NCBI GenBank assembly: GCA_017622815.1
Contig: JAGAQH010000018.1
Location: 1 to 64,000, forward strand
Direction: 5' to 3'
From: Bacteroidaceae bacterium
GTDB lineage: Bacteria; Bacteroidota; Bacteroidia; Bacteroidales; Bacteroidaceae
Length of the DNA stretch: 64,000 nucleotides
A program made the position numbers and the translations under genes. Position 1 is the stretch's first letter, and the number at the start of each line of letters is the position of its first letter. Shown piece after piece: positions 25,671-43,616 of this stretch. Below the pieces are notes generated by a model, which was given only the letters and a program-made list of their open reading frames with translations, was not told the origin of the DNA and searched no databases.

Positions 25671-26048
25671 ATGCGTGATTATAAAACGGCATCTCCGGAC
25701 AGGTATCATCTGTTGAAAGACTTTGCACGTGAGAACAGAAAGAACCCAACAATGGCCGAGCAGGTGATGTGGGAGCATATTAGAGCACGGCAGACAGGGA
25801 GAAAAGTTTTTCGTCAGTATGTTATAGGGGATTATATCGTTGACTTTCTTTTTCCGGAAATCAATCTTGTCGTTGAAGTGGATGGGGCCTATCATTCCGA
25901 ACGCGAACAGATAGAGGATGATGAGCGTAGGGAAAGGGATTTAAACAAAATGAATTACAATGTCATTCGTTTTTCCAACGAAGAGATATTGTACGATATA
26001 GAACAAGTAATAGAAAGAATATTAAGAGAATTAGAATATTATGAGTGA
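25671..26048 (+). CDS. DUF559 (Vsr-like) endonuclease domain protein
   Basis: This 125-residue DUF559 protein has a PD-(D/E)xK nuclease-like core: [20 protein letters not shown] places Asp58, Glu69, Asp71 and His75, followed by [10 protein letters not shown] and VIRFSNEEI. It sits between leuA and leuC and overlaps the leuC start by 8 bp, so the two may be translationally coupled. Inverted copies of the hairpin repeat flank it at 25581-25617 and 26058-26094. By eye it is more A+T-rich than its neighbours, suggesting acquisition. It has no known role in leucine synthesis and is probably part of a mobile or formerly mobile unit. Confidence 0.88.
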
Positions 26049-27480
26049 TATAGTATCTACTCCCCTCCCTTGTGGAGGGGTTGGGGGTGGGTCCGTCTGC
26101 CTCTTCGACAAAATCTGGAACGCCCACATAGTACAGCAGGTACAGGACGGTCCCACACAGTTGTATATAGACAGATTGTATTGCCATGAGGTGACGACAC
26201 CTCAGGCATTTGATACATTGCGTGACAAGAACATCCGCGTGTTCCGTCCCGAGCAGGTGGTGGCAATGCCCGACCATAATACTCCCAGCGACCAGCAGGA
26301 ACGCATCGATGACCCTGTAGGACGCAAGCAGGTTGAGACCCTGGCCAAGAATTGTGCCGAGTTTGGCATACGTCACTTTGCCATGGGAACAAAGGATAAC
26401 GGCATCATCCATGTGGTGGGTCCCGAAAAGGCCCTGTCTCTGCCCGGCATGACCATCGTATGCGGTGACTCGCATACATCCACACACGGTGCCGTGGGTG
26501 CCATCGCTATGGGTATAGGCACTAGCGAGGTGGCTCAGGTGCTGGCATCGCAGACCATCCTGCAGAGCAAGCCCAAGACCATGCGCATAAACATTGAGGG
26601 CACTCTGCCCGAGGGTACTACGGCCAAGGACGTGGCACTCTACATCATGGCACAGATGACAACATCAGGCGCCACAGGCTATGCCGTGGAATATGCCGGC
26701 TCTACCGTGCGCAACATGAGCATGGAGGGTCGACTGACCCTGTCCAACCTGTCCATCGAGATGGGTAGCCGTGCAGGTCTGATTGCTCCCGACGAGACAA
26801 CATTCGCATATCTGAAGGACCGTGAGTATGCCCCCAAGGGCGAGGCATGGGACAAGGCAGTGGAGGAGTGGAAGAAACTCTATTCCGACCCCGATGCCGT
26901 GTTCGACAAGGAGGTGACATACCGTGCCGAGGACATTGCACCGCGCATCACATACGGAACGAACCCCGGTGCAGGCATCGCCATAGATGAGTGCATCCCC
27001 ACCCTCGAGGAGATAGACGAGGCCGACCGCCAGCAGTTCCTCAGCATGCTGGAGTATATGCAGTTCCAGCCCGGACAGAAGTTGGAGGGCACTCCCGTGG
27101 ACTACTGCTTCCTGGGTGCATGTACCAACGGACGCATAGAGGACTTCCGTGCCTTTGCCTCCGTTGTCAAGGGCAAGAAGAAGGCTGACAACGTGGTGGC
27201 ATGGCTCGTGCCCGGTTCTTGGCTCGTGCGCCAGCAGATTATAGACGAGGGCATAGACAAGATTCTGGAGGAGGCTGGCTTTGAACTGCGTCTGCCCAGT
27301 TGTTCTTCCTGTCTGGCCATGAATCCCGACAAGGTGCCTGCAGGCAAGTTGTCCATCTCAACGAGCAACCGCAACTTCGTAGGTCGTCAGGGTCCCGGTG
27401 CCCGTACCATCCTGGCAAGTCCTCTGGTTGTTGCCGCTTCGGCAATCACTGGCGTAGTAACAGACCCCAGAAAGTTGTAG
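26041..27480 (+). CDS. leuC: 3-isopropylmalate dehydratase large subunit, repeat-extended N-terminus
   Basis: This 479-residue aconitase-like large subunit isomerises isopropylmalate with LeuD. The cluster ligands appear as the Cys in GACTNGR and the two in CSSC near the C-terminus; [10 protein letters not shown] is also clear. The family normally starts close to [10 protein letters not shown]. Here the first 18 residues, [18 protein letters not shown], come largely from a hairpin repeat, and no ATG, GTG or TTG lies in frame between the repeat and LFDKIW. So the ATG at 26041, overlapping the DUF559 stop, seems the only start and the repeat is translated. Confidence 0.94.
26058..26094 (+). repeat. 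GGGTCC hairpin repeat, copy 5 (inside leuC)
   Basis: This full forward copy lies within codons 6-18 of leuC and encodes [13 protein letters not shown]. The stem is CCCCTCC/GGAGGGG. Confidence 0.9.
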
Positions 27481-27485
27481 CAGCA

Positions 27486-27517
27486 GACCCTCCCCTCACC
27501 CTCCCTAGGGAGAGAGG
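27486..27517 (-). repeat. GACCC hairpin repeat, copy 6
   Basis: A diverged reverse copy lies just after the leuC stop and pairs with the forward copy at 27622-27659. The 104 bp between them are A+T-rich and hold no gene. Confidence 0.65.
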
Positions 27518-27621
27518 TGTTACTTCTGTAATCAACAAGCGAAGGTGGATAAATACCTTGCTGAATACTATAATAAAGTTCAACTAAAAAAGACTTACCC
27601 CTACTGTTATATAAAACATTA

Positions 27622-27659
27622 TACTCTCCTCCCTTGTGGAGGGGTAAGGGGGAGGGTCC
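27622..27659 (+). repeat. GGGTCC hairpin repeat, copy 7 (before leuD)
   Basis: This forward copy has a CTCCTCC-type stem and ends GGGTCC, 8 bp before the leuD start codon. Its frame, LLPCGGVRGR, is open and joins leuD in phase, so an extended LeuD starting at 27545 is formally possible. Confidence 0.85.
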
Positions 27660-27667
27660 TTATCAAT

Positions 27668-28282
27668 ATGAAACAGAAATTCGACATAATACAGTCAACC
27701 TGCCTTCCCATACAGATTGACAACTGCAATACAGACCTTATAATCCCTGCCCGCTATCTGGCAAGCACAACGCGCGACCCGAAGTTTTTCGGCGATGCCT
27801 TCATGCACGACCTCCGCTTTGATGCCGAGGGCAACCCCGTGGCAGAGTTTGTAATGAACAAACCCGAGTATAGCGAGGCACCCAAGCAGGGCGTACACGA
27901 AATCATCATAGGCGGACAGAACTGGGGTTCGGGCTCCAGCCGCGAGCATGCAGCATGGGCTATCGCTGGTTATGGCGTGCGCGTGGTGATAAGCAGTTCC
28001 TTTGCCGACATCCACCGCAACAACCTGCTCAACTGCTTCGTGTTGCCCGTCATCGTGAGCCGTGAATTCCAGCAGGAACTCTTCGAGACCGTAGCGGCAA
28101 ATCCTCAGGCAGAGGTTCGCGTTGACGTTCCCAACCAGACCGTAACCAACCTGAGCACCGGCCACAGCGAATCATTCGACATAAACGGTTACAAGAAGTA
28201 TTGCCTGATGAACGCTCTGGACGACATCGACTTCCTGCTGGAAAACAAGGGGAAGATAGAGGAGTGGGAGGAAAAAAGGTAA
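27668..28282 (+). CDS. leuD: 3-isopropylmalate dehydratase small subunit
   Basis: This 204-residue swivel-domain subunit partners LeuC. GGQNWGSGSSREHAAWAI is the family signature near 80-97. The start at 27668 (MKQKFDIIQSTC) matches the family. The frame stays open upstream to an ATG at 27545 through the hairpin repeat, but that extension has no family counterpart. Confidence 0.95.
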   Translation: MKQKFDIIQSTCLPIQIDNCNTDLIIPARYLASTTRDPKFFGDAFMHDLRFDAEGNPVAEFVMNKPEYSEAPKQGVHEIIIGGQNWGSGSSREHAAWAIAGYGVRVVISSSFADIHRNNLLNCFVLPVIVSREFQQELFETVAANPQAEVRVDVPNQTVTNLSTGHSESFDINGYKKYCLMNALDDIDFLLENKGKIEEWEEKR

Positions 28283-28295
28283 GCCCCCCAAAAAC

Positions 28296-28333
28296 GGACC
28301 CTCCCCCAGCCCCTCCGCAAGGGAGGGGAGTGG
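28296..28333 (-). repeat. GGACCC hairpin repeat, copy 8
   Basis: This reverse copy lies 13 bp after the leuD stop and pairs with the forward copy at 28414-28450; 80 bp lie between them. Confidence 0.85.
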
Positions 28334-28372
28334 TTACAAAAGCGATATTCTTTTGCTACGGAGGTACCATTT

Positions 28373-29980
28373 ATGAATACAACCGACAAAGACTTGCATA
28401 AAACAAATCATCTTACTCCCCTCCCATGTGGAGGGGTCGGGGGAGGGTCTGCCTTTTCCCGTACCATAGAAATAATGGACACCACTCTGCGCGATGGAGA
28501 GCAGACCAGTGGTGTCTCTTTCATGCCCCACGAGAAACTGATGATTGCACGCACCTTGTTGGAAAGGGTGGGCGTGGATCGCATAGAGGTAGCCTCGGCT
28601 CGTGTCAGCGAGGGAGAGAAACAGGCTGTGGCCAGCATCTGCAAGTGGGCGGAAAGGGCCGGCAAGATAGACAGGATAGAGGTCCTGGGCTTCTGCGACG
28701 GCACAACCTCGGTGGACTGGCTTCTGAGCACAGGATGCCGCCACCTGAATCTCCTGTGCAAAGGTTCACGCCGTCATTGCGAGGGGCAGTTGCGCAAGAG
28801 CGTGGAGGAGCATATCAGCGACATACGCGGCGTGGTGGCATACGCCACGCAGAAGGGAGTCAATGTGAATGTCTACCTGGAGGACTGGTCCAACGGCATA
28901 AAGGACTCTGCCGACTATGTCTTTGCCCTGATGGACGGATTGCAGAACACCCCCATCGAACGCTATATGCTGCCCGACACTCTGGGTGTGCTGAACCCCA
29001 TGCAGGTGAGCATGTACATAGGCCAGATGGTGGCCCGCTATCCAGAGGCACATTTCGACTTCCATGCACATAACGACTACGACTTGGCCGTGGCAAATGC
29101 CTTTGCCGCCGCCAGTGCAGGATGCATGGGCATACATACTGCCGTAAACGGGCTTGGCGAGCGTGCTGGCAATGCACCCTTGGCGAGCGTGCAGGCGGTT
29201 CTTGCCGACCAGGCAGGCTTTGAAACGCGCATCAACGAGGAGCAACTGGGCGAGATTTCCCGTCTTGTGGAGACATGCTCGGGCATCGTGGTGCCTCCCA
29301 ACAAGCCCATCGTGGGCGAGAACGTCTTCACCCAGGTGGCCGGAGTGCATGCCGATGGCGACAACAAGGCCGGTCTGTACATGAACGACCTGTTGCCCGA
29401 ACGCTTTGCCCGCAAACGAGAATATGCCCTGGGCAAGACCTCGGGCAAGGCAAACATCCTGAAGAACCTTGAAGAACTCGGTCTGGAACTGAGCAGTGAG
29501 GAGACCCGCATCGTCACGGAGCGCATAATAGAACTTGGCGACAAGAAGGAAATAGTCACCCGCGAGGACCTGCCCTTCATCGTGTCCGATGTGGTGCGTC
29601 ATGCCACTGCCGACGAGGATGTGCGCCTGCTCTCTTACGTTGTCACCACGGCCTACGGCCTGAAACCCATGGCCAGCCTGCGGTTGGAAATTCATGGCAA
29701 GACCTACGAGGAACAGGCCCACGGAGACGGTCAGTTCGATGCCTTCGTACGTGCCATACGCCATATCTATCGAGAGAAACTCGGCCGCGAATTCCCTTGG
29801 CTCGTCAATTACACCGTGGGCATACCTCCCGGCGGACGTACCGATGCTCTGGTGCAGACTGCCATCACATGGGATTGGCAGGACAGAGTGTTGCGCACTC
29901 GAGGCCTGGATGCCGACCAGATGGGCGCCGCCATCAAGGCGGTGATAAAGATGCTTAATTTGATAGAAAAGGATTATTAA
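28373..29980 (+). CDS. LeuA/CimA-family synthase with repeat-encoded N-terminus
   Basis: This 535-residue second member of the isopropylmalate/citramalate synthase family has [36 protein letters not shown] and a C-terminal regulatory domain (about 400-535). It could make citramalate for isoleucine or 2-isopropylmalate; the sequence does not decide. The first 27 residues include [12 protein letters not shown] from a hairpin repeat. Alternatives are an internal ATG at 28475 (MDTTLRDG), which would cut off the first strand, or TTG at 28394. A start upstream of the repeat is the most likely, since the family begins a few residues before IEIMDTT. Confidence 0.9.
28414..28450 (+). repeat. GGGTCT hairpin repeat, copy 9 (inside the second leuA/cimA-like gene)
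   Basis: This forward copy encodes [12 protein letters not shown] in the same reading phase as the leuC copy. The stem CCCCTCC/GGAGGGG is intact. Confidence 0.9.
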
Positions 29981-31310: not shown

Positions 31311-31607
31311 TTACAACACTTCGGGCAGTTGGAAGAGTCGTGTGCCGTTACTTCCCTTGATGAGGATTGTTCGGCCTGATAATGGGGTGGTGTAGAGCCT
31401 GTCCTTTACTTCTTCTACGTTGTTGAAGGTGGAATGTTTGCCGAGTGCAGAGCAATCCGCGTTGCAGAACTCCTGTCCCACGAGCCATATCTCGCAGAGT
31501 TCCATTGTGGCAAGGTGGAAAATGATGCGCTGGTGCTCTGTGGTGCTGTCCGCTCCCAGTTCGCGCATCTCGCCGAGGATGACCATTTTGTTTTCTGCCT
31601 GCATCTG
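31311..31607 (-). pseudogene. murF: murF 3'-end fragment (direct repeat, left copy)
   Basis: These 297 bp match the last 297 bp of the intact murF gene at 42321-42617 with 15 mismatches counted by eye (about 95% identity), in the same orientation. The fragment encodes the last 97 residues of MurF plus two codons and keeps its own stop codon (TAA, against TAG in the intact gene). Homology ends sharply at 31607. With the intact copy 11,010 bp away, it brackets the tubulin-like island. It looks like the former 3' end of murF left behind when the island inserted. It is not expected to make a functional enzyme. Confidence 0.9.
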
Positions 31608-32193: not shown

Positions 32194-32817
32194 ATGCTCT
32201 GGGATATAATCACTAATTCTATCAGTAGCCTTTTCTGGGGAATACTGATAGCTGTTGCCTGTATGGCGTTGTTTGTGTTTATCATTAAGGGATGGTGGAA
32301 GGATGCAATGTTCTCCGCATGGTCTTATATGATAGGTGCCGTACTGTTTCTACTGCTAACTTTCCAGTGCACGATGATAGTTGGTTCCTTGAAGATAATC
32401 AATAGCACCGATTCGTACGAGGCTTATTTCACGGAGATTATAGACCACATGTATGAGGGATGGGAGCAGGTTCCTACAGAAGATGCCGACGTAGTCATAA
32501 AGAAGGCTATTGCCGAATACCCCCTGCTTGAGTACTATATCGGAGGCGGAGAGTTCACTGGTTTCAATGCCAAGCAACTTCCTGGTGCCATAGCAGAGGA
32601 GATGCGCTCCTTCATGCGGAAATACATATGTCGTCGCCTGTTGTGGTGCTTAGGATTTGTTTTAGTGGCCGGTGTTATAGGCATAAAGACGCTGGACAAG
32701 CGCTATGCTTACACTTCGCATGGCCGTGGCGGTACATCTGGGCGCAACCGTTCTTCTTCCCGTCCCATGGCGGGAGGTTCTCATCGTCCACGAGTGAATA
32801 CGCATAGAAGACGATAG
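32194..32817 (+). CDS. Island membrane protein of unknown function
   Basis: I do not recognise this 207-residue protein. It has three predicted membrane segments (about 13-33, 43-66 and 146-165). Between the second and third lies a stretch of about 80 residues with acidic character, and the C-terminal tail is strongly basic and Gly/Ser/Arg-rich (after about 172). It is the first gene of the tubulin-like cluster, 40 bp before the tubulin-like gene. I infer it may anchor or recruit that protein at the inner membrane. Confidence 0.75.
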   Translation: MLWDIITNSISSLFWGILIAVACMALFVFIIKGWWKDAMFSAWSYMIGAVLFLLLTFQCTMIVGSLKIINSTDSYEAYFTEIIDHMYEGWEQVPTEDADVVIKKAIAEYPLLEYYIGGGEFTGFNAKQLPGAIAEEMRSFMRKYICRRLLWCLGFVLVAGVIGIKTLDKRYAYTSHGRGGTSGRNRSSSRPMAGGSHRPRVNTHRRR

Positions 32818-32857
32818 TGAAGAAAACTAAAATCATCAAATATAAAACCTAAAACGT

Positions 32858-35800
32858 ATGTCAACAAAGAATTATTGTACAGGCAATCATATCCTGGTTG
32901 GCCTTGGAGGCACCGGTGGTAAGATCCTGAAGGCTTTCAAAATGCGCATGTTCGAAGAGTTTCCCACTGCCGAGGAGCGCAAGAAGCTCCCTGTGGCTTT
33001 GCTCTATGTGGACTCTACTAACGAAATGATGCCAAAGGACGGACGTTCCCGTCCCGACTTCCGTGTCATGGGACAGGATGCTTCGTTTACCAACAATGAG
33101 TTCCTTAACATCAAGGCCGTGGACGTGGAATATATACTGAACCATATAGGTAATTATCCTTCGGTAAATGGCATTGTGAAAAACGTGAATGGAGTGAAAC
33201 AGGCAATAGGTTCTCTGGGTGAGGCGGCGGGTCAGATGCGTCGTGCCGGTCGCCTGCTTTTTGCCGCCAATGCAATCGGTTATGTCAACAGCCTGCGCGA
33301 TGCCTATTCCCGTTGCCAAAGTGTTTCAGGTGATGCTGATACACTTTACGTCCATGTTTTTGCTGGTTTGAGTGGCGGTACTGGCTCCGGATCTATCGTT
33401 GACGTTGTTGTTCAGACACGTAAGATATTCCCCGATGCCGTGATCAGTGTTTATGCTATGATGCCAGAGATGCATTTGCCAAAGGCTGACATGGACCAGG
33501 GACGTTATTATCAGAATGGTTATGCCGCATTGGCGGAACTCAATGCTCTGCAGGCAGGACGTTGGTTCCCGCAGGATGTGACAGGCGGAGGTGAAGCAAA
33601 ATATCATAGCGACAAAATAAAGGGCGTTGCCAACGGCCTCACCATTTATAGTAATGTAAATGAAAATGGTGTAACCGTAAACTCTCTAAAGGAGTTGCCC
33701 AAGATCGTCAGTGACTATATCTTCGCTCGAATATTCGTTGTAAATGAAACTGATGAAAATTTGGTTGGCATCAAGCATGCTTTCAGGTATGAAAATATGG
33801 ACAAATTTTCATATGAGTACGATGAAGCTGCAAATGTAGGAGTAGAAGGACAAAAGCCCGTAGCAAGAACAAAGAAGATTGCTTCTTTCGGCATCAAACG
33901 TGTCATGTATCCCGAACTGCGCATCTTGAAGCATATAACATATACTGTGGGCGAAAGTGTACTGTACCAGTTCAAGTACAACAACTGGCGCGAGAACCAA
34001 GGATTCGTCAACGAGGAACGTAATAAGGACTACAGAAAGGAATACCTGAATTCTGATAACTTGTCCAAGTGGATGCTGGACGAGAAGCACCTTACTCAGG
34101 AAGTGAAGGTTTTGGAATCTGATGCCGATTATCCCTTGTTCTCCGATTACTGGCACGACAAGGCTATTGGCTATGCAGAAGAAGCCAAAAAGGCTGATTG
34201 CCCTTTGAACGAACTGGACAACATCATGGCCGAGTTCTATACAAACCATTTCCGCGAGGAGGGAGTAGAGTCCTTCTATGTGGGTAAGGCAAAGGCCATT
34301 CCTGAAATATCCAAGGAGATCAGACACAATATCGAAGCAGAACTATTTGATAAATGGAAGGTGGGCGATGTATCCATCGTGGAATTGCAGAAAGTATCCA
34401 AACTGTTGCTGGAGCGCATGGGTGAAATCCGCACCGAATTGGAGGCAAGAATCAAGGAGGCAAAGGAAGAGTACGAGGCCTGCGACCAGGATCGTATGGA
34501 CAACGTGTCCGAATGGAGCCGCTTGGGTATCCTACAGAGAATGGTGGGTGCTGGTGCACGCCGCTATGCCGACCATCAGGGCATATTGACCGACTATTAT
34601 ACTGCCAAGACCCAACTGATAGCACTGGAGTTCGCCAAGCAACTCGCTGCAAAGGTATTTGTGGAACTGGGCAAGATGGATGCCGACATCCTTTCTTTCA
34701 GCCAGAAGATAAATGAAGCAATAGAGGAAACAGAGCGCCTGGTTGCTGCACAACGCAAGGTGAACAAGGGGCTGGAGGACATGAAGGGCGCCATCATCGA
34801 AGTGAGCGAGGACGATGCCATGACTGAGTTCGAAGTAGAGATGAAGATAGACAAGGTGGACATGCCCAATATATCCCGTCAGCTTCGCGAGTCGATCCTT
34901 CCTCAGGAGGAATTCGTCAACTTTGGCAGATTGGCAAATGAAATTAGTGTGGACGACATCAAGGATGCATTTGATGTAAAATTGTCTGAAGTTGTAAGAG
35001 CCAAGCATGACGAGAAGGCTGACAGCGATAACAAGGTGCTTGGCCTTAACATCCTTACCCAGTTGCAACAGAAACTCAGAACAGATGACAGCATCAAGCA
35101 ATTCGCTCATGACATAGTATCTCAAAGTGGCGCCTTCCTAAAACTGAATAATGACCAAATTCAGTTGCATTTACGTAATAACGAGCTTGAACTCAGTCCG
35201 ACTAATCCGGCATCAACGAACAAGAAGGTAATTCTTGTCTCAATCCCCTCGCCGGATGACAACACGGGTCTTACCAAATTCGCAGATAAGCTGGAGGATG
35301 CAATTAAGAACTCGTTCAACCAAAGTACAGCACGTACGGAGATTATCATCGACCGAAAGAGTCCACGCAAGGATGAACTCTGCATCATGACTGTGTCTTA
35401 CAACTTCCCCATGCGTGCCATTGACTGGATGGCTCCATATAAGGAACGTTATGAGCAGTTCCTGAACACGGGTAATCCCAATACTGATGCAAGCAATGCC
35501 ATCTTGTTGCATAGCGAGGGCGATGGCAAGGCACTTCCTTCTGTATTCGCGTTGAGTGATGAGGAAATAAAAGCTAAGTTGGCGGCCACACAAGGTCCTC
35601 AACAGCCAGTCGTTCAAGATATCATGCAACCGTTTGGTCAGCCACAACCCGTTGCACCTGTACAACAGCAGCCTGCGCCACAACCAATAGGTGACGTGAT
35701 CGCACCTCCTCCTCCAGGCGGAATGGTGCCTCCTCCTCCTGTATTCCAGGAGCCACAGATAAATCTCTTTTTGTCTGTGGCAGGTCAGAGTTATGGCCCT

Positions 35801-36001
35801 TATAACTATGCTACATGCAAACAGTATGTGCAGAGTGGCCAGTTGACGGCACAGTCAATGGTTTGGATGGAAGGAATGCCCGCATGGGCCCCAGCTGGTC
35901 AGGTTCCTGCATTACAGGCCCTCTTTGCTCCCCCACCTGCAATGCCCGGACAGCCGACACCTCCTCCAATGGGTGGTCCCACACCTCCTCCAATGGGATA
36001 G
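32858..36001 (+). CDS. Tubulin-like GTPase with C-terminal GYF_2 domain
   Basis: This 1047-residue protein begins with a tubulin/FtsZ-like GTPase domain: the nucleotide-binding start ILVGLGGTGGKILKAFK at 12-28 and the tubulin signature AGLSGGTGSGS at 169-179. It belongs to the large Tubulin_2-like proteins, not to FtsZ. Residues of about 510-690 are rich in charged helical sequence and may be coiled coil. A Pro/Gln-rich linker (about 910-965) leads to a GYF_2/DUF4339 domain at about 967-1023 (SYGPYNYATCKQYVQSGQLT, MPAWAPAG), then a PPP-rich tail. No signal peptide, so cytoplasmic. I infer a polymer-forming or scaffold GTPase acting at the membrane with its neighbours. Confidence 0.88.
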   Translation: MSTKNYCTGNHILVGLGGTGGKILKAFKMRMFEEFPTAEERKKLPVALLYVDSTNEMMPKDGRSRPDFRVMGQDASFTNNEFLNIKAVDVEYILNHIGNYPSVNGIVKNVNGVKQAIGSLGEAAGQMRRAGRLLFAANAIGYVNSLRDAYSRCQSVSGDADTLYVHVFAGLSGGTGSGSIVDVVVQTRKIFPDAVISVYAMMPEMHLPKADMDQGRYYQNGYAALAELNALQAGRWFPQDVTGGGEAKYHSDKIKGVANGLTIYSNVNENGVTVNSLKELPKIVSDYIFARIFVVNETDENLVGIKHAFRYENMDKFSYEYDEAANVGVEGQKPVARTKKIASFGIKRVMYPELRILKHITYTVGESVLYQFKYNNWRENQGFVNEERNKDYRKEYLNSDNLSKWMLDEKHLTQEVKVLESDADYPLFSDYWHDKAIGYAEEAKKADCPLNELDNIMAEFYTNHFREEGVESFYVGKAKAIPEISKEIRHNIEAELFDKWKVGDVSIVELQKVSKLLLERMGEIRTELEARIKEAKEEYEACDQDRMDNVSEWSRLGILQRMVGAGARRYADHQGILTDYYTAKTQLIALEFAKQLAAKVFVELGKMDADILSFSQKINEAIEETERLVAAQRKVNKGLEDMKGAIIEVSEDDAMTEFEVEMKIDKVDMPNISRQLRESILPQEEFVNFGRLANEISVDDIKDAFDVKLSEVVRAKHDEKADSDNKVLGLNILTQLQQKLRTDDSIKQFAHDIVSQSGAFLKLNNDQIQLHLRNNELELSPTNPASTNKKVILVSIPSPDDNTGLTKFADKLEDAIKNSFNQSTARTEIIIDRKSPRKDELCIMTVSYNFPMRAIDWMAPYKERYEQFLNTGNPNTDASNAILLHSEGDGKALPSVFALSDEEIKAKLAATQGPQQPVVQDIMQPFGQPQPVAPVQQQPAPQPIGDVIAPPPPGGMVPPPPVFQEPQINLFLSVAGQSYGPYNYATCKQYVQSGQLTAQSMVWMEGMPAWAPAGQVPALQALFAPPPAMPGQPTPPPMGGPTPPPMG

Positions 36002-36037
36002 TAAATCAGATACATAATAAAAACATAATAAAAAGAT

Positions 36038-36850
36038 ATGGCATCAAATAGAAGCGAACGAGTTCGCAATAGATATGGCATCTGTCTGAATGACAGTTGT
36101 TCAAAGTGTAAAGGAAAGGAAGTGCAGGAAGTTCCTGCCCGTAAGGATTTTGTCTGCGCCGAGTGTGGCAAGCCCCTTCGTGAATGTCCTCCCCCACGTT
36201 CATGGTGGGACAAGCACGGCAAGAAGGTAATCGGTGGCATTGTCGTAGCTCTATTGGCAGCTGGTGGCGCATGTGTCGCTCTGCTTGGCGGTGGAGAGAC
36301 TACTCCTCCAACACCTTCTGCTCCACCAACCCCACAAGTGGAGACACCGGTGATAAGTCCGGAGTCTGGTGAATACAAGAACGATGTTAAGGTTACTTTG
36401 GATTGTGCTACAGATAGCGTAAACATCTATTATACACTGAATGGAGAAGAACCTTCAGATGTTTCTGCTTTGTATTCAGAGCCTATACAGATAGACAAGA
36501 CAACGACAATAAAAGTGATTGCATGTAGACCAGGATATATAAATAGTAATGTTTCTGTCGCAGAATTTACAATAAGCAAGGGCAAGACCCCTAACCCTAC
36601 AGGTGTTGGTTCCGGTAAACGCTATAAGGGGACCTTGAATCTGGGTTATGGAAGGTATTCCGGCGATATAGTGGACGGTAAGCCCGATGGCGCAGGTGTG
36701 CTGACCTATACCAAGCAACAGAAGGTGGTTAGCACAAAGGATGTCGTTGCAGAACCTGGCGAACGTATAGAGGGTGTATTCGAGAATGGCAAGGCCTCTT
36801 TCGTTACTCTGTACAGGAAGGATGGCAACACCGTTAAGGTACACAGATAA
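36038..36850 (+). CDS. Zinc-ribbon, membrane-anchored CHB_HEX/MORN protein
   Basis: This 270-residue protein has an unusual domain chain. An N-terminal zinc-ribbon-like segment has Cys16, Cys21, Cys24, Cys40 and Cys43. One membrane helix follows at about 64-84, then a Pro/Thr-rich linker. An Ig-like chitobiase C-terminal (CHB_HEX) domain runs about 100-180 (TPVISPESGEY, IYYTLNGEEPS). A MORN-like repeat is at about 195-225 (YKGTLNLGYGRYSGDIVDGK). The zinc end would be cytoplasmic and the rest periplasmic. Placed 36 bp after the tubulin-like gene, it may link that protein to the envelope. Confidence 0.8.
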   Translation: MASNRSERVRNRYGICLNDSCSKCKGKEVQEVPARKDFVCAECGKPLRECPPPRSWWDKHGKKVIGGIVVALLAAGGACVALLGGGETTPPTPSAPPTPQVETPVISPESGEYKNDVKVTLDCATDSVNIYYTLNGEEPSDVSALYSEPIQIDKTTTIKVIACRPGYINSNVSVAEFTISKGKTPNPTGVGSGKRYKGTLNLGYGRYSGDIVDGKPDGAGVLTYTKQQKVVSTKDVVAEPGERIEGVFENGKASFVTLYRKDGNTVKVHR

Positions 36851-36864
36851 GGAGTCGTAATGAC

Positions 36865-36903
36865 AATCCTATCCGGAGGAGTTTCCTGCCGGATAGGATT
36901 TCT
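36865..36903 (+). terminator. Terminator-like hairpin inside the island
   Basis: A perfect 12-bp stem (AATCCTATCCGG at 36865-36876 with its complement at 36889-36900) is followed by TCTT. It separates the first three island genes from the next five, so the cluster may be two transcripts or one with attenuation. Confidence 0.7.
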
Positions 36904-38033
36904 TGACAAAGCATCTAAGAGGCATGGGCATCAAACGTATAATATTGCTCGTAATCGTAGCCTTGGCAATATGTTCGGATGTCAGAGCTACAGAATATGC
37001 TACAAAGGGGCTTGAGCGTCTGGCTTCCTGTGTTGGTTTGGACGGGCTTGCCTCCCTCCCCCCCGGTATACATTATATATATGCGTATAGGGGACGGAAA
37101 CTTTCGGTACGCGTAAACGAGTGGAATGAAGTGGAGCACATAGGACTGCTACTCTTTCCCGAGGAACTGCGTAGGCAATATCCTCTGCCCATATATGATT
37201 TCCTGGAACGCTACCTGTTGGCTCGCAATGCCTTTCCCGACGACTCTGACGAACAATTCAGGATGGACTGGGATAAGGTACACTTTGCGCACGGTGATGC
37301 CCGGACGGCATTGTCATTAGATACGATGACATCCTTCTCGGAGAGCCATGTAGGCTTGCGTGTCTACAAGGTGTCTTGGACAGATGGAGACCGGAAACTG
37401 TTGGAGATGTCTTTCCAGATGGACTACCAGTTGCTGACCGGATGCAATGCTTTGGAACTGGAGAGTATGTTGTTCAGGAAGTTGCGCCGTGGACTGCCCA
37501 AGGGGACCAAGTTGCCACAGACTAACGTCTCTGCCGACGGGACGGAGCATACCAAGTATGGCAAGACTTTTATCAGTCCAATGATTCGCAACGACTTGTT
37601 CTACACGAGAATGGACAAGGATGATCCCTGGACTTTGGTCGCTGATACCGCACGTATGGTAAAGACCATATCAAACATAATGATTGCCCCTGAATCGGAC
37701 CACGACATGAAGATGAGGGTAAAACTTGACAAGTACGGATTAAGGACTGACACAGCTACCGTAGACTATAAGGTGTGGAGGCAACTCTGCATAGAGGAAG
37801 GCTGTGTGCCCTATTTTGGCCTAAAGTCTAAAATAGACGGTGTTTACAGATGTTCCGTGTTTATGGTCAATGAGACAGGTGGTTATCTACACCTGCTCAG
37901 CATAGATGTTCCAGAAAGTGCTATAATGATGCCTGAATGGAAACTTGCCTTGGCAAGGATATATTGTTACATTCCACTATACAATGTATCGGACAATGTA
38001 TTGAACCCCACAGAATTCGAACCAGTAAAATAA
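36903..38033 (+). CDS. Exported protein of unknown function
   Basis: I do not recognise this 376-residue protein. A signal peptide is present (hydrophobic run IILLVIVALAICS, cleavage near residue 29). The start could be the ATG at 36903 or the one at 36924 (MGIKRIIL), which gives a more typical signal peptide. The mature part is mixed in charge, without repeats or clear motifs. It follows the terminator-like hairpin and precedes the next gene by 6 bp. Confidence 0.7.
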   Translation: MTKHLRGMGIKRIILLVIVALAICSDVRATEYATKGLERLASCVGLDGLASLPPGIHYIYAYRGRKLSVRVNEWNEVEHIGLLLFPEELRRQYPLPIYDFLERYLLARNAFPDDSDEQFRMDWDKVHFAHGDARTALSLDTMTSFSESHVGLRVYKVSWTDGDRKLLEMSFQMDYQLLTGCNALELESMLFRKLRRGLPKGTKLPQTNVSADGTEHTKYGKTFISPMIRNDLFYTRMDKDDPWTLVADTARMVKTISNIMIAPESDHDMKMRVKLDKYGLRTDTATVDYKVWRQLCIEEGCVPYFGLKSKIDGVYRCSVFMVNETGGYLHLLSIDVPESAIMMPEWKLALARIYCYIPLYNVSDNVLNPTEFEPVK

Positions 38034-38039
38034 ACAGTT

Positions 38040-38762
38040 ATGCGACAGAAGATAAGAATGGCCGTAATATTGGCCGTGACATTGTTCTCTTGTGCTTCTA
38101 TCCTTGCCCAAAATACGGTGGACGAGAAGAAACGCGAAATCAATGCCATAAAGAAGAACTCGGATTACATCTATGCCGAAGCTACAATGGCCGACCAGCA
38201 GGCCGCTATAGACCTGGCAAAGGAAATCCTTTATCAGAACGTAAACGAATGGGTGGCCAAACAAAAGAAGTTTGCCAGTGCCAGCAACTTGATAACGGTG
38301 AATACCAATTACTCGGTCGAGGACATGACCTTACCAAGAGGCAATTGGTATAGAGCGTTCATGTATGTGAAGAAATCTGATATAATTCCCGCAGGCAATG
38401 TGTCTGTAATGAAAATTGCCCAAAAGGAATCTGAGATGAAAAAGGATGTTTCCATGGTACCCACGGTAAAATCCGCGTCCTCAGAGGATATTGTCAAAAA
38501 TCAACTGCTGGAGTGTAGGAACACAGGACAGCTATCCACTCTGCTCAAGAATCTGAAGGCAGAGGGTAAGGTCAGCGACTATCGTAAACTGAACGATCTG
38601 ACATCTCCAGAAACGTATGTCATAGCCATCTTTAGCAAGGAAGGCGTTATACGTGCCATACTGAGTGAGGGAGCTGAGCGTACAAACCTTAAAACAGGTC
38701 GGCCCGACCAGATATCCAACTACAAGGGAAACGGAGCAATAGGAATTAAAATAAAGAAATAG
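38040..38762 (+). CDS. Exported protein of unknown function
   Basis: This 240-residue protein begins with a signal peptide ending near CASILAQ (about residue 23). The mature N-terminus is helical and charged (KKREINAIKKNSDYIYAEAT), with later strand-rich parts. No family was recognised. The tight spacing on both sides (6 and 7 bp) places it in one transcript with its neighbours, and the shared export signals suggest the five proteins act together in the periplasm or outer membrane. Confidence 0.72.
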   Translation: MRQKIRMAVILAVTLFSCASILAQNTVDEKKREINAIKKNSDYIYAEATMADQQAAIDLAKEILYQNVNEWVAKQKKFASASNLITVNTNYSVEDMTLPRGNWYRAFMYVKKSDIIPAGNVSVMKIAQKESEMKKDVSMVPTVKSASSEDIVKNQLLECRNTGQLSTLLKNLKAEGKVSDYRKLNDLTSPETYVIAIFSKEGVIRAILSEGAERTNLKTGRPDQISNYKGNGAIGIKIKK

Positions 38763-38769
38763 AAAGAAT

Positions 38770-39783
38770 ATGAAAAGGATAATGTTATGTGTGTGTTCAT
38801 TAATTGCGGTGCTCTTTGCCAACGCAATTACTGTTACCATTACTGTGGACGAAGGTTTTGACAATCCTGCAATCTTGGAAAAGATGCAAACGAACCTCGG
38901 TCGTGTACTTACAGAGATTAACGATGCCTATAATGGCAAGAGGGACATCAATACTTCATCACTGCAGATGGATGACCATGCGAAGAATATGCTTGTTACT
39001 CTATGGTCCACAGTGCATTTCTATTGCGACGACGAAGAGGTGGTGGACAGATGCTGGCCTCTGAAAAACTCATATCTTTTGCGTCAGATACCATTGATTC
39101 TCGAACCCCAGGACGAGACTTTCACAAGCGGAACATATCAGGAAGCGGTAATTGAATTCGATAAGACCGGTAAGATTTCTGACTTTCGCTTTGCTTTGGA
39201 TGCACAGTTGTCCGAGAGCATGGAACGTTGCGGTTCTGTGGTAGAAACGGAGCGCCGTATGATAATCCTTGACTACATAGAGCAGTTTCGTACCGCATAC
39301 TGCACCAAGGACATTGACTTTATGGAAAAGATTTTCAGTGACGATGCCGTGATCATTACCGGTAAGGTTATCCGCACTCGTCCCAACGACTTCGGTAAGT
39401 CCAATGCAAAGGTTGTCTACAACAAGCAGACAAAACAGGAATATCTCAGGAACCTGAAGCGCGCATTTCTCCGCAACAAGTATATTGATGTCAAGTTCAG
39501 TGAAATTGGCGGTGGTTCAAACGAAGGAGGATGCCCAGGTATCACCCGTTCGCAGAACAACCCCAACTTCTATGGTGTGCGCCTGTTCCAGGAATGGAAG
39601 TCCAGCAACTACAGCGACGAGGGTTATGTATTCCTGCTATGGAACTTTACCAATGAGAACGAACCCGTCATAGAGGTAAGAACATGGCAACCCTCCTACA
39701 TTGCAGCAGGCAATGGTCAGAAGCAGGCCCTGCCCGAGGAGGACATCTTCAATATGAGTTCTGTAGAAGACATGATAAAATAA
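38770..39783 (+). CDS. Exported protein with a possible NTF2/SnoaL-like domain
   Basis: This 337-residue protein has a signal peptide (about 1-19, cleavage near LFANA). The segment YIEQFRTAYCTKDIDFMEKIFSDD around 168-192 resembles the first helices of an NTF2/SnoaL-like fold; the final part is rich in aromatic strands. The assignment is weak. It is spaced 7 bp from each neighbour. Confidence 0.7.
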   Translation: MKRIMLCVCSLIAVLFANAITVTITVDEGFDNPAILEKMQTNLGRVLTEINDAYNGKRDINTSSLQMDDHAKNMLVTLWSTVHFYCDDEEVVDRCWPLKNSYLLRQIPLILEPQDETFTSGTYQEAVIEFDKTGKISDFRFALDAQLSESMERCGSVVETERRMIILDYIEQFRTAYCTKDIDFMEKIFSDDAVIITGKVIRTRPNDFGKSNAKVVYNKQTKQEYLRNLKRAFLRNKYIDVKFSEIGGGSNEGGCPGITRSQNNPNFYGVRLFQEWKSSNYSDEGYVFLLWNFTNENEPVIEVRTWQPSYIAAGNGQKQALPEEDIFNMSSVEDMIK

Positions 39784-39790
39784 AGGAAAC

Positions 39791-41344
39791 ATGAAACTAC
39801 GTTTGTTGATATTATACGTCCTGTCCTGTGTTACTATGCTTGCCGTTGCACAGGAGTCCATGATAACAATATCCAAGGACTCCAGATTGTCCAAAGAGGA
39901 ACAATTGGAAGGCAAGGCGGCAGTTGTCTTCATGTCAAAGTCAGAAGAACTCGTTATCAGCACGACTGTCAACAAGGATCCTATATGCGATACCCCACAG
40001 AAGACCGCCCAAGGTTTCGAGTACAGGATGGTACTGGACATTTCCGGAGGACGTGACCGCATATTCAATATTTCCAAGAAAGGCACCACCTTTACAGAAA
40101 AGACAGGCCAGGTTCTGCTGGAAGCCAACAGATGCATCGGCTTTAACGTGGAGATAGTAAATAACCCTATTACGATGGAAACGTCCGATGAAGGCGGATA
40201 CTATATCCAAAGCGGCAACGGTTGGGCATTGATAGAAATAAACAGTGAGATTAAACTGGACCTGACCTACAGTCCAGACTTGCGCGCCATACACAAGAGC
40301 GGGCTTTCCAAAGCAGGAACTTATGTGGACTCACTCATTATAAAGGTATCGGACCTGCATGATATGACTGAGGACTTAAGGGAAAAGAACGCCTCTCTGG
40401 AGCTTCTGAATGCACAGTACGACTCTCTGCTTGAGAACCAGGCTTCGGATGCAGAAATAGATGCCTTGGAAAAGAATATAGCCCTTGCCAAAGACGAAGC
40501 AGAGAAGATGTCAGACAAACTGAACCATCTGACCTATATAAGCATCAAGGGAGAAGGGACTAACGAACGCACAATAGAGCAGGCAGATGTTCTCGCACTG
40601 AACAGCAAGGAGAAAAGATCGTACAAGGTGATGGCACTGCTTAAGACCGTTTCCGTCTTCAAGACCAAGTACGAGGAAATGGTGAACCAGGCTGTCAGTC
40701 ACAAGAACTCTCGCGACTATGCTTCAGCCAAGATGTACTACGAGAATGCTGCACAGGCAGAGGGAGCCTCGGCGAGCGACAAACAGGCAGCACTGCAGAG
40801 CGCCCAACAGATGGACAAACTGGCCAAGTTCAAGGCTGAGACCGACGTAACTGCAGATAAACTGTATGAACTTTCCGCCAACAACAGGGTTGTCAACAAG
40901 GAGGCCTTCATGAAGATGATAGACGACATGGTAGAGCGCTACAATGCCCTGTACAAGGAAACCGGTGATGATTTTTATTTGGAAGAGGCGCAACGGTTGC
41001 AAAAGGAGAAGACAGGCATTGGTTTCGTATTCAAGGGTAGAATCGTTATCGGCGAGTATAAGGGTGGTTTAGTTCACGAAACTCCATTGGCTAATGTCAG
41101 CATATATGGTTCGCAGTATTCTAACTGTGAAGACATGGAAAAGAAGGAATATCCGCACAAGGGAGAACTGATAACAACTGTTACGGATCCCGATGGCAGA
41201 TATAGCCTTACTTTGAAGCCCGGCCAGTACAAGACTTTGATATTTGAGGCTAATGGTGAAAGGAAGATAAAGAAGAACAAGCATGTCGGCGTGGAAGGTC
41301 GTACGGACGACAGAAACGTGAAGATTCGTTTCACTAAGGACTGA
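39791..41344 (+). CDS. Exported coiled-coil protein with carboxypeptidase-regulatory-like domain
   Basis: This 517-residue protein has a signal peptide (about 1-20, LAVAQ). Residues of about 190-250 form a likely coiled coil (TEDLREKNASLELLNAQYDS). A helical, TPR-like stretch of about 285-420 follows. The C-terminus is a CarboxypepD_reg-like beta domain (about 430-510; GELITTVTDPDGRYSLTLKP). Such regions often mediate envelope protein contacts. No enzyme motif was seen. Confidence 0.75.
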   Translation: MKLRLLILYVLSCVTMLAVAQESMITISKDSRLSKEEQLEGKAAVVFMSKSEELVISTTVNKDPICDTPQKTAQGFEYRMVLDISGGRDRIFNISKKGTTFTEKTGQVLLEANRCIGFNVEIVNNPITMETSDEGGYYIQSGNGWALIEINSEIKLDLTYSPDLRAIHKSGLSKAGTYVDSLIIKVSDLHDMTEDLREKNASLELLNAQYDSLLENQASDAEIDALEKNIALAKDEAEKMSDKLNHLTYISIKGEGTNERTIEQADVLALNSKEKRSYKVMALLKTVSVFKTKYEEMVNQAVSHKNSRDYASAKMYYENAAQAEGASASDKQAALQSAQQMDKLAKFKAETDVTADKLYELSANNRVVNKEAFMKMIDDMVERYNALYKETGDDFYLEEAQRLQKEKTGIGFVFKGRIVIGEYKGGLVHETPLANVSIYGSQYSNCEDMEKKEYPHKGELITTVTDPDGRYSLTLKPGQYKTLIFEANGERKIKKNKHVGVEGRTDDRNVKIRFTKD

Positions 41345-41442
41345 ATCCCTTTCCCGATTTAGGTCCGTCTTACTTGTTGGCATTTACCCAATGCCCCCGA
41401 AAAAAGACATTTATTATCACAACACATAAAATAATAAGAACT

Positions 41443-42201
41443 ATGAAAAAGTTATTGGCATTTATTGCACTGTCCATGTGCTTAGGTTTGATTATCCCTA
41501 CTCAAGCAAGTACATTTATTGACAAAAAGGAGAAAAAAGAAAAGAAGAAGAAGGCTAAGAAACCATATGTATGGGTAATGCCTGCATTGACCGGCAACAA
41601 GGATTTTGACGATTACCTGAAGCTGTGTGACGATCTTAATAACAAGATTGTGGCGTATTCCGACAGCATTGTTTTCTATGAAGTTGCAGAGATACATGTA
41701 ATAGATGAAAGCGGCGAGAAGGATATTCAATATCATGTGGTAGACTCTGCCGGCAATCTCCGCAGTGCCAACAAGGCTTTCCAGCAGAACTTTGATCTGG
41801 TAATGGCATATCCTCTTATTGCGTTGGATATGACTAATCTCGGTCTTGCATCAACCTCGGCATCACTTGCACTTGCTGATCTTGGCCTGAATGCCATTTC
41901 TTATGGCAAGTACATCAAGGCCGGCCCCATCCTGATTGGTCGTGGTGGTAAGGAGATGAAGGAAATATACAAGCGTGCACGTGCGCAGGCCAAGCAAATC
42001 AAGGCCTTGAAGGAAGGAAAGATTGATGACGTCAAGGCCTTGAATGCAGAGGTTAACGCTTCGGATGTTGAAGCCGGCACTGCCTCTATGCGTGTGATAG
42101 AGATGCAGAAGTCTGACTATGATTCAGAACTTGAGAAGGTGACACAAGAAGATAACGAGACACCAGTTTCCAACGAGGAAATTCCCGAGGAAGTGGTGTA
42201 A
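41443..42201 (+). CDS. Exported lysine-rich protein of unknown function
   Basis: This 252-residue protein has a signal peptide (about 1-22, TQAS) followed at once by a dense Lys/Glu run (KKEKKEKKKKAKK) and a mixed helical part; the tail is acidic. The start at 41443 gives the signal peptide its proper N-terminus; a longer frame begins at 41374. It is the last island gene and is followed by a terminator-like hairpin. Confidence 0.72.
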   Translation: MKKLLAFIALSMCLGLIIPTQASTFIDKKEKKEKKKKAKKPYVWVMPALTGNKDFDDYLKLCDDLNNKIVAYSDSIVFYEVAEIHVIDESGEKDIQYHVVDSAGNLRSANKAFQQNFDLVMAYPLIALDMTNLGLASTSASLALADLGLNAISYGKYIKAGPILIGRGGKEMKEIYKRARAQAKQIKALKEGKIDDVKALNAEVNASDVEAGTASMRVIEMQKSDYDSELEKVTQEDNETPVSNEEIPEEVV

Positions 42202-42320: not shown

Positions 42321-43616
42321 CTACAGCATCTCCGGCAGTTGGAAGAGTCGTGTTCCGTTACTTCCCTTGATGAGGATTGTGCGGCCTGATAATGGGGTGG
42401 TGGAGAGCCTTTCCTTTACTTCTTCTACGTTGTTGAAGGTGGAATGTTTGCCGAGTGCAGAGCAATCCGCGTTGCAGAACTCCTGTCCCACGAGCCATAT
42501 CTCGCAGAGTTCCATTGTAGCAAGGTGGGATATGATGCGCTGGTGCTCTGTGGCGCTGTCCGCACCCAGTTCGCGCATCTCGCCGAGGATGACCATTTTG
42601 TTTTCCGCCTGCATCTGGTTGAAGTTGTCCAGTGCCGCCGCCATGCTGGTGGGATTGGCGTTGTAGGCGTCTATGATGAGGCTGTTGCGCTCTGTCTTGC
42701 GGAACTCGCTGCGGTTGTTGGTGGGTACATATTCCTCCAGAGCCTTGTCTATGAGAGCAGGTGCTACGCCGAAGTGCAGGCCCACGGTTATTGCGGAGAG
42801 GACATTGGCCAGATTGTAGGAACCGATGAGGTTGGTCTGCACGGTGTGCCACTCTGCCTCCGCCCTGCAATACCAGCGGACACGGAGCATGGGATTGCAC
42901 TCCGCTACCTCTCCCTGCACGTAAGGTACGGTTTCTATGTTTCGCTCCGTTGCCATGTCTGTAAGGTCGGTGTCCTTGGTGTTCAGGAATGTGAAGCCGC
43001 CTCTGGCCTGCAGGTCATCGTATAGTTCGCCCTTGGTATGCTTCACACCCTCGAATGAGCCGAATCCCTCCAGATGGGCACGCCCCACGTTGGTTATCAG
43101 ACCGCAATCCGCCTGTACCATCCGGCACAGGAAGGCAATCTCCCCGGGATGGTTGGCACCGGTCTCTATCACCGCCATTTCATGCTCGGGGCGCAGACGC
43201 AGAAGAGTGCGGGGCACACCGATGTGGTTGTTGAGGTTGCCCTGAGTGAAGAGGGTGTTGTATTTCATTGTCAGCACGGCAGAGAGCAGTTCCTTGGTGG
43301 TGGTCTTGCCGTTAGTGCCCGTTATCTGCACTACGGGGATGTCGGTCTGCCTGCGATGATGTGCCGCCAGCGCTTGAAGCGAGGTCAGTACATCCTCCAC
43401 CAGACAGAAACGGTTGTCACCTTCGGGGACAATATCCGCTTTGTCCACCACGGCCACGGCACACCCCTTTTCCAGGGCTTGCATGGCATACAGGTTGCCG
43501 TCGAAATTCTCACCCTTCAGTGCAAAAAACATGCTCCCTTCGGGGCAGTTGCGACTGTCCGTCGTAACCTCGGGATGTTGCAGAAACACCTCGTATAGTT
43601 GTTCTGTGCTTGTCAT
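42321..43616 (-). CDS. murF: UDP-MurNAc-tripeptide-D-Ala-D-Ala ligase
   Basis: This 431-residue Mur ligase adds D-Ala-D-Ala to the peptidoglycan precursor. The ATP loop GTNGKTTTKELL is at about 99-110, and ETGANHPGEI and NAHLEGFGS-like segments follow. The length is normal. Its last 297 bp occur again at 31311-31607, so the gene's 3' end marks one boundary of the island. The stop codon is TAG. Confidence 0.95.
   Translation of the reverse strand: MTSTEQLYEVFLQHPEVTTDSRNCPEGSMFFALKGENFDGNLYAMQALEKGCAVAVVDKADIVPEGDNRFCLVEDVLTSLQALAAHHRRQTDIPVVQITGTNGKTTTKELLSAVLTMKYNTLFTQGNLNNHIGVPRTLLRLRPEHEMAVIETGANHPGEIAFLCRMVQADCGLITNVGRAHLEGFGSFEGVKHTKGELYDDLQARGGFTFLNTKDTDLTDMATERNIETVPYVQGEVAECNPMLRVRWYCRAEAEWHTVQTNLIGSYNLANVLSAITVGLHFGVAPALIDKALEEYVPTNNRSEFRKTERNSLIIDAYNANPTSMAAALDNFNQMQAENKMVILGEMRELGADSATEHQRIISHLATMELCEIWLVGQEFCNADCSALGKHSTFNNVEEVKERLSTTPLSGRTILIKGSNGTRLFQLPEML

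What the first reader, a model, noticed from the sequence alone, without database searches (positions are those of the whole stretch)
32194..42201. Undescribed tubulin-like GTPase cluster with envelope partners
A 1047-residue tubulin-like protein (GLGGTGGK at 15-22, SGGTGSGS at 172-179) is clustered with a three-helix membrane protein, a zinc-ribbon/TM/CHB_HEX/MORN protein and five signal-peptide proteins of unknown function. Published FtsZ-like families have been linked with vWA, GTPase and OmpA proteins; none of those partners is visible here. This suggests a distinct cytoplasm-to-envelope system, perhaps a membrane-bound polymer with periplasmic parts. The function is inference.
Basis: partly seen in the sequence, partly recalled or inferred. 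Interest (0 to 1): 0.87.

Follow-up and report, generated by a model that had tools for sequence, protein, structure and literature searches.

The report
Swappable bacterial tubulin envelope machine
Some gut bacteria of the Bacteroides/Prevotella group carry eight genes in which a tubulin-like protein inside the cell seems to be tied, through two membrane proteins, to a complex outside the inner membrane, and related strains have exchanged the tubulin part at the membrane border, which points to the proteins that join the two halves.

Summary
Genes A-H (32194-42201) encode a Tubulin_2/FtsZl1 GTPase (165.6 bits), a three-TM protein, a Zn-ribbon/TM/CHB_HEX/MORN protein and five secreted proteins. 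The tubulin family is known (Makarova & Koonin 2010); I found no description of this gene set. Order is conserved in 59 of 59 complete named loci. In 301 family genomes, 30 of 31 with this tubulin have gene F, and 30 of 30 with a strong F have it. Other Tubulin_2 genes of the family lie in different loci, several with vWA or peptidase neighbours.

New here: the operon is two evolutionary modules joined inside gene C. C's cytosolic end follows the tubulin (rho 0.66-0.72), its periplasmic end follows D-H (0.56-0.74); tubulin and F are nearly uncorrelated (0.08). In one pair of loci (F 99%, tubulin 27% identical) near-identical DNA stops behind A's last TM helix and resumes at C's TM helix. Best reading: the tubulin docks on the cytosolic parts of A and C; C couples it to D-H. 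Function is inferred, polymerisation untested, structure prediction failed.

The parts
32194..32817 (+). Gene A: three-TM protein, 207 aa; core (about residues 1-167) and Arg-rich cytosolic tail (about 168-207)
   Evidence: tail exchanged with the tubulin in relatives; topology is inference
32858..36001 (+). Gene B: Tubulin_2/FtsZl1 GTPase, 1047 aa, with helical middle, Pro-rich linker and GYF_2 domain (971-1019)
36038..36850 (+). Gene C: cytosolic Cys-rich Zn-ribbon-like segment with CPPP (1-57), TM (about 64-82), CHB_HEX (108-172), MORN-like end (197-270); the bridge between the two modules
36924..38033 (+). Gene D: secreted protein of unknown fold, 369 aa with the corrected start
   Evidence: no convincing Pfam or PDB match
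38040..38762 (+). Gene E: secreted protein, 240 aa
   Evidence: no family match above cut-off
38770..39783 (+). Gene F: secreted protein, 337 aa, best conserved member; C-terminal half probably NTF2-like (weak: DUF4440 19.1 bits, below cut-off)
39791..41344 (+). Gene G: secreted protein, 517 aa, CarboxypepD_reg-like end (21.3 bits, below cut-off)
41443..42201 (+). Gene H: secreted protein, 252 aa with the corrected start

Best explanation
The operon encodes a trans-envelope machine of two halves. Inner half: the cytosolic FtsZl1 GTPase B, docked on the cytosolic tail of A and on the cytosolic Zn-ribbon segment of C. Outer half: the periplasmic end of C with the secreted proteins D-H. A and C are the anchors and C is the bridge. 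GTP-driven assembly of B on the inner membrane (inferred) would gather or move the anchors and so organise the D-H complex, that is, remodel or tether the envelope locally. Shown from sequence: family, gene order, co-occurrence, two-module evolution, exchange of A tail + B + C N-terminus as one unit. Inferred: physical docking, polymerisation, contact with the outer membrane, the cellular task.
For: Family. Conserved order. Co-occurrence 30 of 31 and 30 of 30 in 301 genomes. Two modules: C N-terminus with B 0.66-0.72 and with D-H -0.02 to 0.14; C C-terminus with D-H 0.56-0.74 and with B 0.11-0.14; permutation p 0.005 for C N-terminus/B and C C-terminus/F, 199 permutations. Exchange in L128/L129. 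Among pairs with F over 70% identical, 106 pairs with different tubulin types have A core 0.45 and A tail 0.14, 155 same-type pairs 0.51 and 0.29. Eight independent type changes on supported branches of the F tree, with PPP of C (mean 7.4 of 8) and the A tail end (mean 6.9 of 8) moving along. E and F: LPP20 fused to F-type domains in L167, L170, L197.
Against: A tail, B and C N-terminus are neighbours on the DNA, so linkage alone gives part of the joint movement. In protein comparisons the best cut in C lies at residues 121-148, behind the TM, also for L128/L129 (130); only the DNA match places it at codon 61. Same-type control pairs also show a step in C (median gain 14.3 against 27.6). C C-terminus/B is weak but significant (0.11, p 0.005), and within the tubulin groups it reaches 0.2-0.5. 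In four of 11 pairs the cut in A carries little weight. The T7 catalytic loop of tubulins is not identifiable. Four tubulin-less loci among the 80 nearest show that the outer half can do without B.
Confidence: 0.58

Rival explanations
1. A signalling or conflict system: D-H sense an envelope event, C transmits it, and the cytosolic part (tubulin, or kinase or TIR in relatives) is an exchangeable output, comparable to the NTP-dependent conflict systems of Kaur et al. 2020, some of which contain tubulins.
For: C-type proteins with a kinase in L162 and L163 (102.7 and 106.9 bits), and a TIR protein matching the C profile in L124 (TIR_2 45.9 bits). A gene of one cluster, Trypsin_2 in L124 (64.4 bits), is close behind H in 6 loci; TerB-like pairs in 3 (33.0 bits in L124). 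Kaur et al. describe tubulins in GAP1-N2 GTPase systems (PMC7159879, passages).
Against: Such genes accompany few of the loci. No PADLOC match for the eight at E below 0.1. Of 100 nearest flanking proteins (of 130 listed) each of 26 PADLOC families was matched by one member only at E up to 1e-10, and the common Pfam families are housekeeping or metabolic; no distal control was scanned. No GTPase, GAP1 or HSP70 family found in the eight.
Confidence: 0.27
2. The linkage is only genetic: an operon that travels together, with B and D-H acting separately.
For: Tubulin and F evolve almost independently (0.08), and the outer module exists without tubulin.
Against: F and this tubulin co-occur in 30 of 31 and 30 of 30 genomes, order is kept in 59 of 59 complete loci, and exchanges keep C in one piece with its two ends following different partners.
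Confidence: 0.1
3. It is an ordinary FtsZl1 system of the published vWA/GTPase/OmpA kind whose partners are too diverged to see.
For: Same GTPase family; the 2010 paper reports many lineage-specific partners with TM segments (PMC2875224, parts 1-2 read).
Against: No vWA, GTPase or OmpA match in the eight at E up to 1. Seven other Tubulin_2 loci of the family show none of A, C-H by my profiles; 4 of the 6 loci whose neighbours were scanned have a vWA match at E below 0.001 (one over its cut-off), 3 of 6 a papain- or calpain-like peptidase.
Confidence: 0.05

Closest known systems
FtsZl1 (Tubulin_2, PF13809) systems, Makarova & Koonin 2010, PMC2875224 (parts 1-2 of 5 and passages read; supplements not seen)
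   Same: Same GTPase family and similar build: N-terminal FtsZ-like domain, helical/coiled-coil middle, about 1050 aa; many partners with TM or signal peptides.
   Different: Partners named there are vWA, GTPase, kinases and OmpA-type proteins; none is seen here. A GYF_2 domain on the tubulin and the A, C-H set are not mentioned in the parts read.
GAP1-N2 GTPase-centric conflict systems with tubulins, Kaur et al. 2020, PMC7159879 (passages only)
   Same: Tubulin with helical extension, membrane-near build, Zn ribbons, NTF2 and PEGA domains beyond TM segments.
   Different: Built on TRAFAC GTPases with GAP1, tubulin forms reported in Firmicutes and Actinobacteria; no such GTPase in this operon.
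Divisome logic: FtsZ with membrane anchors and an envelope-spanning complex (recalled, no call)
   Same: Works like it, if the docking is right: cytosolic tubulin homologue, inner-membrane anchors, periplasmic complex.
   Different: No homologous partners; a separate FtsZ-type gene is in the genome.

Membership tests
Tubulin_2 / FtsZl1 | Match to the Tubulin_2 profile over its cut-off | tested here: met
   165.6 bits against 27, residues 12-368 of B
Tubulin_2 / FtsZl1 | Glycine-rich nucleotide loops T1 and T4 | tested here: met
   G15-G21 and G173-G178 invariant in 60 sequences; profile match to FtsZ only at 164-227, E 0.0011, probability 20%
Tubulin_2 / FtsZl1 | GTP hydrolysis and filament formation | not testable with these tools
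   needs purified protein; T7 loop not identified by the profile comparison, as the 2010 paper also reports for T6-H7
Published FtsZl1 operon (vWA, GTPase, OmpA, kinase) | At least one of these partners beside the tubulin | tested here: not met
   none in A, C-H at E up to 1
GAP1-N2 GTPase-centric conflict system | TRAFAC GTPase with GAP1 in the neighbourhood | tested here: not met
   no P-loop GTPase match in the eight; GAP1 itself was not searched with a model of its own
Known anti-phage system (PADLOC) | Match of a component to a PADLOC model | tested here: not met
   best E 0.19 for C, none for the others at E up to 1

The most novel reading that the evidence does not exclude
A plug-in envelope chassis: one conserved outer module (D-H with the outer half of C) that evolution couples to interchangeable cytosolic cartridges, namely two far-diverged tubulin types and, in distant relatives, a kinase (or a TIR protein of the same build). 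The cartridge is cut at the membrane faces of A and C, which makes a bacterial tubulin one end of a transmembrane transmission line.
Probability: 0.42. Interest if true: 0.86.

Novelty: new variant of a known kind. Interest (0 to 1): 0.73.

Why it matters
How a cytoplasmic FtsZ-like protein could act with periplasmic partners was raised in print by a reviewer of the 2010 paper (PMC2875224, passage). The natural exchanges found here name two candidate bridging proteins and the segments to test, so the question becomes directly testable. They also suggest that a tubulin homologue can be swapped as a unit against a constant envelope apparatus, a natural experiment that would be valuable for the study of bacterial cytoskeletons.

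Tried and rejected
G as a relative of the PEGA/SUMF1 proteins (cluster c8): not significant, dropped. E as an LPP20 member: window E has no LPP20 match, and a comparison with the N-termini of six F-fusion proteins was not significant; what remains is that LPP20 domains are fused to F-type domains elsewhere. GYF of the tubulin binding the PPP of C as a general rule: rejected, because the four type II tubulins with GYF have no PPP in C; possible only for type I. Mobile or phage origin: no F relative in viral contigs or plasmids; in phage records B gave two weak partial matches. PDB by sequence: nothing for F and E at E up to 10; weak response-regulator matches for D, best E 0.013; for B weak matches, tubulin at E 0.25. 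Rfam and tRNA scans of the window: none.

Searches behind the statement that this gene set was not found described: (open-licence PMC papers, no preprints). Read: PMC2875224 parts 1-2 of 5 plus passages; PMC9871819 passages; PMC7159879 passages. No supplements.

Full report
What is there. Eight + strand genes, called A-H here, lie between leuB and murF. B (32858-36001) matches Tubulin_2 with 165.6 bits and has a C-terminal GYF_2 domain. C has a Cys-rich N-terminus, one TM segment, a CHB_HEX_C_1 domain and a MORN hit below cut-off. A has three hydrophobic regions; D-H each begin with one hydrophobic segment. None of the eight matches vWA, a P-loop GTPase or OmpA at E up to 1, and NCBIfam, PADLOC and PHROGs add nothing above a cut-off or convincing. 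D and H starts are corrected to 36924 and 41443.

Is it a unit? B was searched in 301 genomes of the family; 31 have an operon-type tubulin by my reading (185 bits or more over the GTPase part). The F profile over the same number of genomes gave 30 genomes at 412 bits or more. All 30 are among the 31; the one left over, G207, has its tubulins at contig ends. Of 33 stretches compared (window and L031-L062) B is in 32, C, D and F in 28 each, A and E in 26 each, G in 20, H in 19, in the order A-H; PEGA/SUMF1-type proteins (c8) lie behind F in six loci and upstream in one (some E and C genes were lost there to overlapping ORFs). A scan of named genomes with F gave 471 relatives; the nearest 80 were kept: F 80, E 79, D 78, C 76, B 73, G 70, A 68, H 65. 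Fifty-nine have all eight, all 59 in the same order and strand. Seven of 80 lack B: three are cut by the contig end (L091, L103, L123), four are tubulin-less (L087, L117, L122, L127). The 80 are the nearest relatives of the window's F, so these figures lean towards the window's form. Record titles name Prevotella, Bacteroides, Phocaeicola, Paraprevotella, Parabacteroides and unnamed Bacteroidales, with isolates such as Bacteroides ndongoniae, B. mediterraneensis, Caecibacteroides pullorum, Xylanibacter muris and Phocaeicola faecium.

Control within the family. Tubulin_2 is over its cut-off in 39 of 301 genomes: the 31 above, six others and two marginal ones. Seven other loci were read (L179-L185; L185 is a second tubulin of a genome that also has the operon). 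By my profiles none carries A or C-H. Ten neighbouring proteins from six of the seven loci were scanned (L183 was not): vWA matches at E below 0.001 in four loci, only L185 over its curated cut-off; papain- or calpain-like peptidases in three. So two kinds of FtsZl1 locus coexist in these bacteria.

Two modules. For 68 loci with A-F (window and 67 of the 80) I compared pairwise distance matrices. The first 57 residues of C agree with B (0.66 for the GTPase part, 0.72 for the middle) and not with D-H (-0.02 to 0.14). The C-terminal part of C agrees with D, E, F, G, H (0.61, 0.65, 0.74, 0.64, 0.56) and hardly with B (0.11, 0.14). B and F are nearly uncorrelated (0.08; 0.31 and 0.18 within the GYF+ and GYF- groups). 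Along C, agreement with B falls from 0.71 (residues 1-45) to 0.09 (61-105) and agreement with F rises to 0.71 at the end. Permutations (199): C N-terminus/B 0.70, p 0.005; C N-terminus/F 0.05, p 0.175; C C-terminus/F 0.74, p 0.005; C C-terminus/B 0.11, p 0.005, so that a weak link remains. A agrees with B within each group (0.49-0.73) and less with F (0.14-0.33).

Tubulin types. Thirty-two of 68 tubulins share the window's backbone (type I; over 45% identical), all with GYF; 36 are of other backbones (type II), four of these with GYF. In exchange pairs the tubulins are 23-39% identical. On the F tree the type changes 15 times (200 shuffles: mean 22.8, minimum 17); the GYF label changes 17 times on the F tree and twice on the B tree. 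PPP stands behind the Zn ribbon of C in 30 of 32 type I and 5 of 36 type II loci; an acidic residue among the last four of A in 0 of 32 and 30 of 36. On eight independent pairs over supported branches both move with the tubulin (means 7.4 and 6.9; median p 0.008 and 0.016). As these features are neighbours on the DNA, linkage explains part of this. The four type II tubulins with GYF have no PPP in C, so GYF-PPP docking is not general.

A natural exchange. L128 and L129 (two metagenome-assembled genomes) have F 99% and tubulins 27% identical. Their DNA is 96.7% identical over 1554 bp ending at about codon 170 of A and 97.4% over 6111 bp starting at about codon 61 of C. The differing segment is the tail of A behind its last TM helix, all of B, and the part of C before its TM helix, to within a few residues; part of the C linker behind the TM differs too. 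Eleven non-overlapping pairs (of 80) were cut by likelihood: in A the best cut is within 21 residues of the predicted end of the last TM in 10 of 11, with little weight in four; in C it is at 121-148, behind the TM, including L128/L129 (130). Same-type control pairs (107) also show a step in C, but smaller (median gain 14.3 against 27.6). A chimeric contig cannot be excluded for L128/L129 alone; between isolates L095 and L116 the picture is the same (F 0.72, B 0.24, A core 0.62, A tail 0.17).

How it probably works. The simplest reading is that B touches A and C through the exchanged cytosolic pieces, while the other ends of A and C stay with D-H. B would assemble on the inner membrane and act on the outer complex. 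E-F contact is suggested by LPP20 domains fused to F-type domains in three proteins (L167 27.0, L170 27.7, L197 33.0 bits, cut-off 25.9), with a PEGA/outer-membrane-barrel protein next to the one in L167. What the machine does for the cell is not shown.

Wider family. F-type domains occur in 24 of 395 genomes drawn across the phylum, the window and one operon-bearing genome (G645, L201) included. Twelve other stretches from eleven of these genomes were read; none has a tubulin match, most have E-like and c8-like neighbours. So the outer module is wider than its link with tubulin. In L162 and L163 the C-type protein has a kinase in front; in L124 a TIR protein matches the C profile. This supports exchangeable inner parts and keeps the signalling reading alive.

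Novelty. The GTPase family is known; the gene set, the two-module structure and the exchange at the membrane faces were not found in the papers searched. I class it as a new variant of a known kind.

Noticed in passing
window 31312-31607 and 42322-42617: A 296-bp direct repeat (95.3% identical) flanks the operon: the 3' end of murF is present a second time as a fragment upstream of gene A. It was not seen upstream of A in L031, the near relative compared.
   Followed up: partly
window 36865-36900: A strong hairpin (fold of 36850-36925: -27.3 kcal/mol, z -3.5) lies between C and D, close to the boundary of the two modules.
   Followed up: partly
L063:13521-15203; L074:1836-4157; L077:1855-4176; L096:2254-4410; L124:330-2930: Second tubulin genes in five of the 80 named loci; in L063, L074 and L077 the glycine loops are degraded, in L124 both are kept, in L096 the copy begins like the main one but lacks the second loop.
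   Followed up: partly
L162:2472-4115 and L163:10772-12472: C-type proteins with a Ser/Thr kinase in front of the TM and MORN parts, beside D-E-F and without tubulin.
   Followed up: partly
L124:13390-19028: The operon continues with a Trypsin_2 protein, a TIR protein of C-like build, a 712-aa membrane protein and a TerB-like pair.
   Followed up: partly
L041/L105 (Xylanibacter muris) and L089: The tubulin gene is in two ORFs while the other operon genes are intact.
   Followed up: no
L182, L184, L185: The other kind of Tubulin_2 locus in this family has a protein of about 1140 aa with a papain- or calpain-like peptidase domain next to the tubulin.
   Followed up: no
window about 25700-28450: The leu operon has recurring translated stretches such as [12 protein letters not shown] at gene starts and on the other strand, which suggests a short repeated DNA element between the genes.
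   Followed up: no
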